DNA from: Desulforamulus reducens MI-1
Lineage (GTDB): Bacteria > Bacillota > Desulfotomaculia > Desulfotomaculales > Desulfotomaculaceae
Reading direction: 5' to 3'
Assembly: GCF_000016165.1 (NCBI RefSeq)
Contig: NC_009253.1
Coordinates: forward strand, 1,646,332-1,710,331
DNA: 64,000 nt
Of the stretch, positions 18,681 through 49,105 are shown piece by piece. The notes beneath the pieces were generated by a model. It had not been told where the DNA came from. It was given only the letters and a program-made list of their open reading frames with translations, and ran no database searches. A program made the translations under genes and the position numbers. Each line of letters begins with the position of its first letter. The first letter of the stretch is position 1.

Positions 18681-18934
18681 GTATAGCTAGAATTATAAAC
18701 TTTGTAACATGCAAAATTAAGTTAAGTTTTCTAAAAGATCAGTTAACCTGTGATATAGCTAACAGTTTTTATACAAAAAAACCTGTAATTTTATGCCAAG
18801 TATTTATTTTGCATTAAATATCGGACATTTAAGCCTATAATAATGTAAGTAATTTGTAATACAAGATTGTTTAAATGGTAATATATTATTGCTATACTGC
18901 AGTGAATGGAAAAAATAAGGAGGAGCTACAAGTA
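18681..18934. other. leader of the split chemoreceptor operon
   Basis: A+T-rich DNA. At 18696-18732 AAACTTTGTAACATGC and TTAAGTTAAGTTTTCT look like the two ends of the dispersed repeat with the middle deleted. The CTGTGATATAGCTAACAG site follows at 18748. No ORF is supported; an in-frame upstream ATG at 18875 has no ribosome site. Confidence 0.4.
18748..18765 (+). promoter_or_regulatory. operator-like site shared with the etf promoter (copy 1)
   Basis: CTGTGATATAGCTAACAG differs by one base from the site at 22301. The arms CTGTGA and TAACAG are inverted and separated by six bases, the geometry of Rex (TTGTGA-N6-TCACAA) and Crp/Fnr-type sites. The regulator cannot be named from sequence. Confidence 0.5.
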
Positions 18935-19828
18935 ATGCCTACAAACAATCAATCACCTTTAAACAGCACCGATGAAATAGGAAAACTTGCCGGGTCATTC
19001 GTGACTATGCGGCAAAACCTGCGAGAATTAATTAGTCAATTAGCGGAAAAATCCAACCAAACCAATGATTTAGCCAATACCATGTCCCAGAGCACCAACC
19101 AGGTATCTCAGGCGTCCTCCTCAACAGCCGCTACCATTATGCAGATATCAGCAAGTTCAGACAGTGTGGCCGAACGGGCCCAAGGAGTTGCTGCCAAGGC
19201 CAGGGAATCAGCGGATTTAGCTGACCAGGGGGCCCATAATATGCAGCAAATGACAACCCAGATGAATTCCATTGCCACCGCTTCCCATGATGCTGTGGCA
19301 GCGGCCCAGCGCCTGAATGCAACTTCTAATAGAATTACTCAAATCTTGTCGGTTATTGGAAACATTGCTGACCAAACTAACCTATTGGCCTTAAATGCTG
19401 CCATTGAAGCTGCAAGGGCTGGGGAACATGGCAGGGGGTTTGCTGTAGTGGCGGATGAAGTGCGCAAGTTGGCTGAGGAATCTGCCCAGTCTACCAAGGA
19501 AATCAGCAGCTTAATTAATGGGATTCAATTTGAAATTACGGAAATTGTCTCAAAGCTGGATAGTACCAGCCAAGAGACTGTCAAAGGAAACGAGATTGTA
19601 CAGGTAACATCCCAATCTTTTGTACAAATCCATGATGCGGTGAATGAAGTTAGCTCCCAGGTTGAGGATATGGCGGCAGCTACCCAAGAAATATCCAGCG
19701 GGGTACAAAATATTGCCGCCGCAGTAGAAGAACAGACCGCAACCCTTGAGGAAATTAATAGTAATATTGAGGTATTGGCCGGCGTATCTGATGATCTGCA
19801 AGGTATGGTGAAAAAATTCAAGCTATAA
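18935..19828 (+). CDS. signalling half of a split chemoreceptor (second HAMP helix plus MCP domain)
   Basis: A 297-residue soluble protein with no membrane helix or sensor domain. Residues about 10-32 ([12 protein letters not shown], then RQNLREL) match the second amphipathic helix of a HAMP domain. The rest is a complete MCP signalling hairpin with the conserved tip [20 protein letters not shown] near the middle and a QTATLEEI-type adaptation segment near the end. The missing front half of such a receptor is encoded by the next gene, 15 bp downstream. The ATG at 18935 has an excellent AAGGAGGAG, so this is a designed start and not a broken gene end. It should bind CheW/CheA at an array. Confidence 0.88.
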
Positions 19829-19843
19829 AAAGTGGAGGGTACC

Positions 19844-20521
19844 ATGAAAAATTTAAGCTTAAAGTGGAAGGTATTAGTCCCATTGTTACTGGTGTTAGCC
19901 ACCACAATTTTGCAAATCAACCTAATTATCGCTATGAACCATGCCCAGCAGGAAGATGCAGTGCGGGTTAATGTTGCCGGTCGGCAGCGAATGCTGAGTC
20001 AACGCATGGCAAAGGATGTGTTTGGCTTTGTGTTAACGTCAAACTCCCAGCACCAAGAAGACTTAACAAAGGCCATGGATATTTTTGAACAATCCCTAAA
20101 TGCTTTAAAAACAGGAGGCCCATTGGAGGTAGGGGGAACTAAGGTAGAGGTAACCAAAACTGAAACCCCGGAAATTTTAAACCTCCTATCGGAAGCCGAA
20201 ACAAGCTGGCAAGGGATTAAGTCAGATATTGAGGGCATTGCTAGCATTTCCCCAGAGTCCACTGCCAAGGCAGAGGCTATTAATGAACAATTGGTTAAAA
20301 TGGTAAATACCTTTGATCAGGCAACCAAAATGTACGAAACCGCTTCTGCCGCCACTGTTAAAAAAAATATGACTGTGATTTATGGCTGTGCAGTGGGCTA
20401 TCTGTTTTTAATATTCTTCTCCTGGCAGATTACAAACAAGTATATCATTAAACCTGTGACAGCATTACAGAGGGCGGCGGAGGATATTGCTAAAGGGGAT
20501 TTATCAGGGAGCAGCAAATAA
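19844..20521 (+). CDS. sensor half of a split chemoreceptor (PilJ-type domain, two TM helices, first HAMP helix)
   Basis: A 225-residue membrane protein. TM1 is at about residues 8-30. The extracellular part begins with the PilJ-type motif VNVAGRQRMLSQRMAKD (nitrate/nitrite- or PilJ-like four-helix sensor). TM2 is at about 181-200. The chain ends just after the first HAMP helix, IIKPVTALQRAAEDIAKGDLSG, where an ordinary receptor would carry on into the second HAMP helix. That continuation is encoded by the gene immediately upstream. GGAGGG precedes the ATG. A hairpin terminator follows, with no receptor remnant beyond the stop. Confidence 0.87.
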   Translation: MKNLSLKWKVLVPLLLVLATTILQINLIIAMNHAQQEDAVRVNVAGRQRMLSQRMAKDVFGFVLTSNSQHQEDLTKAMDIFEQSLNALKTGGPLEVGGTKVEVTKTETPEILNLLSEAETSWQGIKSDIEGIASISPESTAKAEAINEQLVKMVNTFDQATKMYETASAATVKKNMTVIYGCAVGYLFLIFFSWQITNKYIIKPVTALQRAAEDIAKGDLSGSSK

Positions 20522-20530
20522 TAAATTAAG

Positions 20531-20578
20531 TATCCCAAAGAAAAAACGCCAATAATCTGGCGATTTCTCTTTGGGATA
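20531..20578 (+). terminator. long hairpin ending the split chemoreceptor operon
   Basis: TATCCCAAAGA pairs with TCTTTGGGATA, and an inner CGCCA/TGGCG stem closes on a six-base loop. There is no clear U tract, but the arms are long and lie 10 bp after the stop. Confidence 0.6.
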
Positions 20579-21219: not shown

Positions 21220-21330
21220 TAGTATGGAAAGATTGTAACTGTACAATAGGAATAAGTACAGCTAAGGCTTATTTCATAGAAGCTATAAGACTTATTAGGT
21301 ATAATTAAATTACTTAAAGAGAAAAGGCCC

Positions 21331-22122
21331 CACCATAAAAAACTCGGTTTTACAGGTTGATTCTTTAAAACTGGATTTAGCTAAACACTCAGTAACCTTT
21401 AACGACAATCCAATAGAATTAACCAAGAGAGAGTTTGATTTGTTGAAATTCCTTTTTGTTTCAGATGCTTCCCATGAATTAAGAACACCCATTTCTGTTA
21501 TCCAAGGCTATGCCAATTTATTGGATAGATGGGGCAAAGATGATCCATCAGTATTGGAAGAATCTTTGGATTCTATTAAAACAGAAGCAGCTAACATGAA
21601 AGATTTAATTGAAAAACTTTTGTTTCTTGCCAGAGGAGACAAAAAAACTTTAAAAATAGAGAAAGAATTATTTTCAATTCATGAATTAATCGATGAAATT
21701 ATAAAGGAAACAAGATTAATTGATCAATCCCATGAAATTTTAAGCCATCGGGTTGAAACGTTTTTGTTCATGCGGATCGGAAACTTATTAAAGAAGCCTT
21801 AAGGAATTTCGTTGATAACAGTATAAAATACTCTCCCGAGGGTGGAACGATTATTATTGACTGCTACGCACAAAATAATCGGGCAATAATTACCATTAAG
21901 GATACGGGTATAGGAATTTCTAAAGAGGACCTGCCATTTATATTTAATCGATTTTATAGAGCGGACAAATCAAGGACAAAACAGACTGGCGGTACTGGAT
22001 TGGGGTTAGCCATAGCGAAGTGGATAATAGAAAGGCATAAAGGAACAATTGGGGTAGACAGTAAAATATCTGAAGGAACAACCATCAAGGTTAATTTGCC
22101 AATACAAATTGATAAGAAATGA
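21331..22122 (+). pseudogene. broken two-component system: response regulator fused to histidine kinase, then frameshifted
   Basis: The first about 35 codons (LQVDSLKLDLAKHSV, then ELTKREFDLLKFLF) are the start of an OmpR-type winged-helix output domain. They run directly into the HisKA domain of a kinase (DASHELRTPISVIQGYANLL). The receiver, most of the DNA-binding domain and the whole kinase sensor are gone. Near 21770 the frame is lost: the first frame stops at 21802. A second frame carries the intact HATPase end (ADRKLIKEALRNFVDNSIKYS, then GGTGLGLAIAKW) to a TGA at 22122. At least two lesions are therefore needed, a large deletion and a smaller frame-changing one. Confidence 0.85.
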
Positions 22123-47512: not shown

Positions 47513-49105
47513 ATGAGATTAAACATTAAACATAAGCTTTTAGGCAGTTTTGGGGTTGTATTATTAATAACGTTGCTAACCTGTCTGTATATGGTGTCCA
47601 GCATGAAAGGTATCAATAATAACTACAATAAGCTTATTAATGAAAAAGCTCATCTCCGTTATTTAGCAACATCGACTATAGCTGAGTCGTATAAAGCGGC
47701 CAACAGTTTGAGGGCTTATATTATCGATGGTGATCCCAATAACCTCGAAAAATTTCAACAGTTTATTAAGAACATAGATGATTATTTCAAGAAAATGGAA
47801 CCACTGGTAACAACCGAAGAAGGTAAAAAGTTATATAATGACTTTGTGAATAAGTTTAAAGTATATAAGGAACGTACAGGTCAATTAATTTCCCTAGTAA
47901 AAGAACGTGAAGCAAGCCAGGGGTCTGATAGGTTAGTGGCCGAAAAAAATATATTGGATTTTTTCCATACCAACAGTGGTGAAATTAGTGGCTTTGGTAC
48001 CGCCGGTGAAAGCTTTGCCAGGTATATTTCTAAGCTATTGGAGGATTACAGTAATCAAAATACAAATGATGTTAACAGGGTTATTTTTCTTTCTACCATA
48101 TCAGTAATTATTACAATTATTCTTGGATTAATTATTGCTTATGTGGTCAGTCAAATAATTACAAAGCCTATACGTTTGGTTAATACTGAAGCGGCTAAGA
48201 TTGCCACCGGTGATCTTAGCGGTAATGAGATTAAGGTGAGATCCCAGGATGAGATGGGCCAATTGGCCGAGTCCTTTAATGTAATGCATAGAAATCTAAA
48301 GGATATTGTTCAACAACTGCAGGAAAAATCAAATAATGTTGCCTCAGTGGCAGAAGAACTTTCTGCTGGAGCAGAGAATGTTTCTGCTGGAGCAAATGAA
48401 ACTGCTGCTACCATCACTCAGGTGGCTGATACGGTAGAACAAGTAGCCACAAACACGCAGAATGTGGCGGATGTTTCGGATCAGGCCACCAGATATGCTA
48501 AGGATGGTGAAGTGGCTATTCATAATGTAAGGTCGAAAATGGATTCCATTCAAAGGGTAACCGAGGCCAATGGGGAGGTAATTCAAGATTTAAGTCAATC
48601 TGTGGTTCAAATCAGCAAAATTGTTGATTTGATTACCCAAATTGCAGATCAAACCAATCTGTTGGCGCTGAATGCAGCAATCGAAGCGGCTAGAGCTGGG
48701 GAACAGGGCCGTGGCTTTGCGGTAGTGGCAGAGGAGGTAAGAAAGTTAGCCGAACAGTCAAGCAATGCCACTAAAGAGATATATAACCTTATTACAACTA
48801 TTCAACAAGAATCCGAACAAGCGGTTGAAAGCATGCAAAGGGCGAAGGATCAAGTAGGTGAAGGAGTTGAAGTTGTACATAGCGTAGGGGAGGCAATTGA
48901 TAAAATAATTAAGTCAGTACAAGAGATAGACCAGGATATACAGTCAATGGCTGCAGCGGCAGAAGAAATAAGTGCTTCTATGCAAAATGTTGCTGCGGCA
49001 ACCGAGGAAGAAACTGCAACCATGGAAGAAGTCTCTGCTAATTCTCAAGGTTTAGCCAGGATAGCTGAGGAACTGGATGGTATTGTTAGGGGGTTTAAAT
49101 TATAA
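47513..49105 (+). CDS. methyl-accepting chemotaxis protein (conventional, four-helix sensor)
   Basis: A 530-residue receptor in the usual single-chain order. TM1 (about 8-28), 4HB_MCP extracellular domain, TM2 (about 190-210), HAMP with both helices ([19 protein letters not shown] and then [13 protein letters not shown]), and the signalling hairpin with the tip [20 protein letters not shown]. It feeds CheA/CheW. It is a useful reference for the split receptor at 18935-20521, whose two halves align end to end with this chain. GAGGTG supports the ATG at 47513. Confidence 0.92.

What the first reader, a model, noticed from the sequence alone, without database searches (positions are those of the whole stretch)
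18935..20521. A chemoreceptor split inside its HAMP domain and encoded in reversed order
Directly visible: the upstream gene holds only the second HAMP helix plus the whole MCP signalling hairpin. The downstream gene, 15 bp later, holds the PilJ-like sensor, both membrane helices and the first HAMP helix. Concatenating downstream-then-upstream gives a colinear receptor, as alignment with the ordinary receptor at 47513 shows (GDLSG, connector, then [10 protein letters not shown]). Each half has its own strong ribosome site and there is no leftover partner sequence at either edge, so this looks maintained and not like random decay. It could be a two-piece receptor whose four-helix HAMP bundle is rebuilt from separate chains. 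A likely origin is a tandem duplication that lost both outer halves.
Basis: partly seen in the sequence, partly recalled or inferred. Interest (0 to 1): 0.8.

Follow-up and report, generated by a model that had tools for sequence, protein, structure and literature searches.

The report
Chemoreceptor made as two HAMP-split chains
Some sulfate-reducing bacteria and their relatives encode a chemotaxis receptor as two separate proteins, cut inside its signal-relay (HAMP) domain and often listed in back-to-front gene order, and this arrangement is conserved across many species, so it looks like a working two-piece receptor and not a broken gene.

Summary
Gene 18935-19828 encodes HAMP helix 2 plus a complete MCP hairpin. 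Gene 19844-20521 encodes a PilJ/NarQ-type sensor, two membrane helices and HAMP helix 1. Joined sensor-then-signal, they give one HAMP domain (42 bits, profile 4-53 of 53); apart they score 17.5 and 25.3 bits.

It is not decay. The swapped pair is conserved in two other Desulforamulus genomes (dN/dS 0.06-0.16), with start codons, ribosome sites and split point kept, at another chromosomal site. Stand-alone signal halves form one clade (100/99) found in 12 of 113 genomes of the class (four families) and in one genome of another class. All 13 genomes also carry a stand-alone sensor half ending after HAMP helix 1. Two unrelated sensor types occur: PilJ-like (5 genomes) and a short two-helix type (8). 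Gene order is signal-first in 6 genomes and sensor-first in 7.

Best explanation: a constitutively two-chain receptor whose HAMP bundle is assembled from separate AS1 and AS2 helices. The window's sensor carries the exact nitrate N-box, so nitrate or a related anion is the likely ligand. Assembly and ligand are inferred, not shown. Known bipartite receptors (CetA/CetB) are cut elsewhere, so this is a new variant of a known kind.

The parts
18917..18925 (+). Ribosome-binding site AAGGAGGAG of the signal half
   Evidence: Sequence; GGAGGG-type site kept at the same place in the two relatives
18935..19828 (+). Signal half, 297 aa: HAMP AS2 plus complete MCP hairpin, no membrane helix, no sensor
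   Evidence: Pfam HAMP 30-53/53 and MCPsignal; orthologues 89-91% identical; clade of stand-alone halves
18971..19036 (+). HAMP AS2 segment (residues 13-34, [10 protein letters not shown]...)
   Evidence: Pfam; dN/dS at most 0.05 between relatives
19834..19839 (+). Ribosome-binding site GGAGGG of the sensor half
   Evidence: Sequence; conserved in relatives
19844..20521 (+). Sensor half, 225 aa: TM1, PilJ/NarQ-like four-helix sensor, TM2, HAMP AS1, then stop
   Evidence: Pfam PilJ and HAMP 4-26/53; NCBIfam NarQ E 1.3e-8; model matches NarQ and McpN structures
19967..20002 (+). N-box VNVAGRQRMLSQ (residues 42-53), the nitrate-binding motif of PilJ domains
   Evidence: Exact match to the published pattern (PMC6381276; checked)
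20438..20506 (+). HAMP AS1 segment (residues 199-221, ...KPVTALQRAAEDIAKGDLS)
   Evidence: Pfam; conserved in all PilJ-type sensor halves
20547..20562 (+). Possible intrinsic terminator ending the two-gene unit
   Evidence: Pattern scan only; not above chance for the region

Best explanation
A two-chain chemoreceptor. The downstream gene makes a membrane sensor dimer that ends after HAMP helix AS1. The upstream gene makes a soluble signalling dimer that begins at HAMP helix AS2 and carries the whole CheA/CheW-binding hairpin. The two dimers meet in the four-helix HAMP bundle (two AS1 plus two AS2). Ligand binding to the PilJ/NarQ-type sensor, probably nitrate, nitrite or a similar anion for the window's copy, moves TM2 and AS1, which shifts the AS2 packing and so the kinase-control hairpin. 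The gap in the chain replaces the usual connector loop. Shown: domain content, exact split point, conservation, selection, co-occurrence, clade. Inferred: physical assembly, signalling direction, ligand.
For: (1) The joined halves restore one full HAMP match: 42.2 bits against 17.5 and 25.3. (2) The swapped pair is conserved in G006 (D. aeronauticus) and G002, at a different chromosomal site from the window, as a two-gene unit. (3) dN/dS is 0.06-0.08 (signal) and 0.12-0.16 (sensor), close to the range of neighbouring genes at 0.04-0.11. (4) In the class, 12 of 113 genomes carry a stand-alone signal half, at 388 bits or more against 283 for the best full-length receptor. Three of these (G074, G086, G089) were not in the model. 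(5) The only genomes with a type A sensor half (4) or type B sensor half (8) are the same 12. (6) A phylum search with the sensor alone found a fifth stand-alone PilJ sensor in another class (G232), and its neighbour was a stand-alone signal half in swapped order. (7) All stand-alone signal halves form one clade, 100/99. (8) Every pair splits in the connector, between GDL and DEIG. (9) In the three Desulforamulus signal halves the residue four before DEIG is L/L/F, where many fused receptors have V or I, so a hydrophobic connector position is retained (alignment, connectors).
Against: AlphaFold models of single halves are of low confidence (pLDDT 65 and 61). Type B sensors match the Pfam HAMP model only weakly (13.6 and 15.2 bits) or not at all (G089) on their own. 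In G086 the two genes are about 2.8 kb apart. The distribution is patchy: 3 of 9 genomes of the window's genus, 1 of 3 of G232's genus.
Confidence: 0.77

Rival explanations
1. The halves work independently: the signal half is a soluble cytoplasmic receptor or array filler, and the sensor half is a separate regulator (for example one that titrates other receptors).
For: Soluble receptors without membrane helices are known (own knowledge). In G086 the genes are about 2.8 kb apart.
Against: Perfect co-occurrence in 12 of 12 genomes of the class and in G232. The complementary AS1 and AS2 pieces are both kept under constraint. A free AS1 or AS2 helix has no known use on its own.
Confidence: 0.1
2. 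The signal half docks onto AS1 of many receptors, and the sensor half onto many signalling partners, so the pair is a promiscuous adaptor set and not a dedicated receptor.
For: One signal-half clade is paired with two unrelated sensor types, so the HAMP docking tolerates different sensors over evolution.
Against: Within any one genome there is one stand-alone signal half and one sensor half, adjacent in 12 of the 13 genomes. No further stand-alone halves were found in the class.
Confidence: 0.08
3. Recent rearrangement debris or a sequencing or assembly artefact.
For: Swapped halves look like the product of a partial tandem duplication. The genome also holds other receptor fragments.
Against: The same pair occurs in independent assemblies with dS about 0.7-0.8 and dN/dS 0.06-0.16, and in another family and another class.
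Confidence: 0.02
4. The halves are rejoined into one chain after or during synthesis, by trans-splicing, a split intein or frameshifting.
For: In the sensor-first family the open frames overlap by about 12-42 nt, so a frameshift could in principle fuse them.
Against: In the swapped lineages a frameshift cannot give sensor-then-signal order. Neither half carries extra sequence that could be an intein piece: each ends a few residues from the HAMP helix.
Confidence: 0.03

Closest known systems
CetA/CetB bipartite energy-taxis receptors (Campylobacter; CetBA in Magnetospirillum), PMC2628428 and PMC12442639
   Same: One receptor function divided between two adjacent, co-transcribed genes, one with the MCP hairpin and one with the sensor.
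   Different: There the cut lies between a soluble PAS sensor and an intact membrane-HAMP-MCP chain. Here the cut is inside the HAMP domain, the sensor chain keeps the membrane helices and AS1, and the signalling chain has no membrane anchor.
McpN (PilJ-domain nitrate chemoreceptor, PMC6381276, PDB 6gcv) and NarQ (nitrate/nitrite histidine kinase)
   Same: Sensor fold, the N-box (exact in the three Desulforamulus sensors), and the sensor-TM-HAMP layout; best structure matches of the model and NCBIfam NarQ.
   Different: McpN and NarQ are single chains. Here the chain ends after HAMP AS1.
Ordinary single-chain MCPs with a HAMP domain
   Same: Hairpin aligned without notable gaps, tip motif intact, HAMP sequence complete once the halves are joined.
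   Different: Two genes, connector cut, own clade. The Asn that 22 of 29 fused receptors have at position 23 of AS2 is in none of the split ones.
Short two-helix receptors and diguanylate cyclases of other Bacillota (L082-L084, L086; L085, L087, L088)
   Same: Share the two-helix sensor with the type B sensor halves.
   Different: They are single chains; the type B halves end after AS1.

Membership tests
CetA/CetB bipartite chemoreceptors | Soluble PAS protein (CetB) partners a chain with membrane region, intact HAMP and MCP hairpin (CetA) | tested here: not met
   No PAS in either half; the signal half has no membrane helix and only HAMP 30-53
Methyl-accepting chemotaxis proteins (signal half) | Complete MCPsignal hairpin with conserved tip | tested here: met
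   MCPsignal 175 bits; tip [16 protein letters not shown] invariant in nine stand-alone halves
Methyl-accepting chemotaxis proteins (signal half) | Binds CheA/CheW and is methylated | not testable with these tools
   Needs experiment
PilJ-domain nitrate sensors (McpN type) | N-box [IVL]-[ND]-x-A-G-x-Q-R-M-L-[ST]-Q with the nitrate-binding Arg | tested here: met
   Exact in the window and both Desulforamulus relatives; two positions differ in G074 and in G232, though the Arg is kept
PilJ-domain nitrate sensors (McpN type) | Binds nitrate | not testable with these tools
   Needs binding assay
HAMP domain | AS1-connector-AS2 in one chain | tested here: not met
   AS1 and AS2 lie in different genes in all 13 genomes
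HAMP domain | Parallel four-helix bundle | not testable with these tools

The most novel reading that the evidence does not exclude
A family of chemoreceptors in at least two classes of Bacillota signals across a chain break inside the HAMP domain. One signalling-chain lineage has been paired with two unrelated membrane sensors, so the HAMP AS1/AS2 interface is a natural, exchangeable docking joint between separate proteins.
Probability: 0.62. Interest if true: 0.85.

Novelty: new variant of a known kind. Interest (0 to 1): 0.72.

Why it matters
How HAMP domains pass a signal is a long debate (helix rotation, piston, dynamic bundle), and most models assume a covalently linked AS1-AS2 chain. 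A natural receptor with the connector cut would show that the connector is dispensable and that the signal passes by non-covalent helix packing. It would also give a ready system in which sensor and signalling halves can be mixed, titrated and labelled separately. The reuse of one signalling half with two sensor types is a natural example of modular rewiring.

Tried and rejected
Decay or artefact: rejected by conserved pairs and dN/dS. An in-frame longer start at 18875: rejected, no ribosome site and not conserved. Independent splits elsewhere by a ribosome-site + ATG + DEIG DNA pattern in 349 genomes: 38 hits, not clearly above the reversed control, and none of those inspected was a receptor. 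The pattern is narrow and missed the window's own pair, so this is weak evidence. Phylum scan with the signal-half model at 1e-90: only known members; that threshold is too strict for distant members, and it would miss G232 (263 bits). Genome-contig scan with the sensor alignment: only the two Desulforamulus relatives. Promoter and terminator scans: not above chance. Origin by tandem duplication: not resolved, since no fused relative is nearest to both halves. The nearest fused relatives of the split signal clade are poorly supported. Literature searches for split-HAMP receptors found only CetA/CetB-type bipartite receptors. The library lacks most subscription papers, so an earlier description cannot be excluded.

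Full report
OBSERVATION. The window is part of a complete 3,608,104-base genome; its relatives are Desulforamulus. The size fits D. reducens MI-1 from memory only. Gene 18935-19828 encodes 297 aa beginning [22 protein letters not shown]. It holds HAMP positions 30-53 of 53 and a full MCP signalling domain. Gene 19844-20521 encodes 225 aa with a PilJ domain and HAMP positions 4-26, ending GDLSGSSK. Joining sensor then signal gives a single HAMP match over positions 4-53 at 42.2 bits, against 17.5 and 25.3 bits for the parts.

CLOSE RELATIVES. Two of eight other genomes of the genus carry the same two genes in the same swapped order: G006 (the D. aeronauticus contig NZ_FRAR01000005) and G002 (a MAG contig), with sensor identities of 82% and 80% and signal identities of 89% and 91%. 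Both genes keep their ribosome sites and short spacer. dN/dS is 0.06-0.08 for the signal half and 0.12-0.16 for the sensor half; dS between the window genome and its relatives is about 0.7-0.8. Neighbouring genes of G006 and G002 give 0.04-0.11. The HAMP pieces are themselves constrained, while the few residues after GDLS vary (these short stretches give rough estimates). The pair lies beside different genes in the window than in G006/G002, where the flanking genes run on the opposite strand, so the two genes form a unit.

WIDER FAMILY. A model of six signal halves run on all 113 genomes of the class (which here equals the order) gave twelve matches of 388-529 bits, all in open frames of 297-328 aa, and then a drop to 283 bits for ordinary receptors. 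Three of the twelve (G074, G086, G089) were not in the model. The twelve belong to four families. Inspecting their neighbourhoods showed that each has a sensor gene ending just after AS1. Type A is PilJ-like and occurs in the window genome, G002, G006 and G074. The G074 sensor is 36% identical to the window's and its pair is also swapped. Type B is a short protein with two membrane helices (FPFF...LGLP...VFRP), found in five g10 genomes and in G085, G086 and G089. A class-wide search with each sensor type found only these genomes, so the two halves co-occur in 12 of 12 genomes, and at the thresholds used neither was found in the other 101. The G086 sensor was not in its model; its gene lies about 2.8 kb upstream of the signal half.

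OUT-OF-SAMPLE CHECK. Searching 369 genomes of the phylum with type A sensors found, besides fused receptors, one more stand-alone sensor (G232, another class). Its neighbour is a stand-alone signal half in swapped order, with the sensor start overlapping the signal stop. This was not selected for. One of three genomes of that genus has it.

PHYLOGENY. The twelve signal halves form one clade against 29 full-length receptors (support 100/99, on a long stem). Adding G232 and more fused receptors keeps the clade at 100/99 with G232 inside. G232 is a long branch and its exact place is unsure. Desulforamulus branches first. Signal-first order occurs in Desulforamulus, G074, G089 and G232; sensor-first occurs only in family f9. 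On this tree, signal-first is the simpler ancestral order, and the sensor type changed at least once. Both are parsimony inferences.

FUNCTION. The window's sensor contains VNVAGRQRMLSQ, an exact match to the nitrate-binding N-box defined for McpN (PMC6381276). It matches NarQ in NCBIfam at E 1.3e-8 over most of its length. Its predicted structure (pLDDT 65, low) finds NarQ sensor-TM-HAMP fragments as the six best solved structures and McpN as the seventh. G074 and G232 deviate from the N-box, though the key Arg is kept, and type B sensors have no such domain, so nitrate is proposed for Desulforamulus only. In f9 and in G232 the split receptor lies close to a nitrite/sulfite-reductase-like protein and an unnamed Cys-rich protein of about 150 aa, homologous between the two classes at 47-50% identity. 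This points to nitrogen- or sulfur-oxyanion or redox sensing.

MECHANISM. The simplest account is that AS1 from the sensor dimer and AS2 from the signal dimer pack as the usual HAMP four-helix bundle without a connector. Not shown: interaction, signalling, ligand. Both single-chain structure predictions are of low confidence, and no complex could be predicted.

KNOWN SYSTEMS. CetA/CetB and CetBA receptors are also two-gene receptors, but they are cut between a PAS protein and a chain with an intact HAMP. Literature searches found no receptor cut within HAMP, within the limits of an open-access library. I therefore file it as a new variant of bipartite chemoreceptors.

Noticed in passing
L027:111-863, and the matching genes in L026, L028, L042: In family f9 a protoglobin fused to a truncated MCP tip (251 aa, MCPsignal 21-107 of 172) lies directly upstream of the split receptor; in G049 (L029:876-1142) it is internally deleted to 88 aa.
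   Followed up: partly
L125:2149-3330; L029:1-847: A NIR_SIR-domain protein and a Cys-rich protein of about 150 aa without any Pfam or NCBIfam family lie near split receptors in two classes, on opposite sides of the receptor.
   Followed up: partly
G000:C1:3164015-3164644 (L008) and G000:C1:3118844-3119275: Other short open frames in the window's genome carry only part of an MCP signalling domain (217 and 149 aa frames); they may be decayed receptors.
   Followed up: no
window 21305-22122: Two adjacent open frames (21305-21802 and 21757-22122) look like one histidine kinase broken by a frameshift, next to the split receptor.
   Followed up: no
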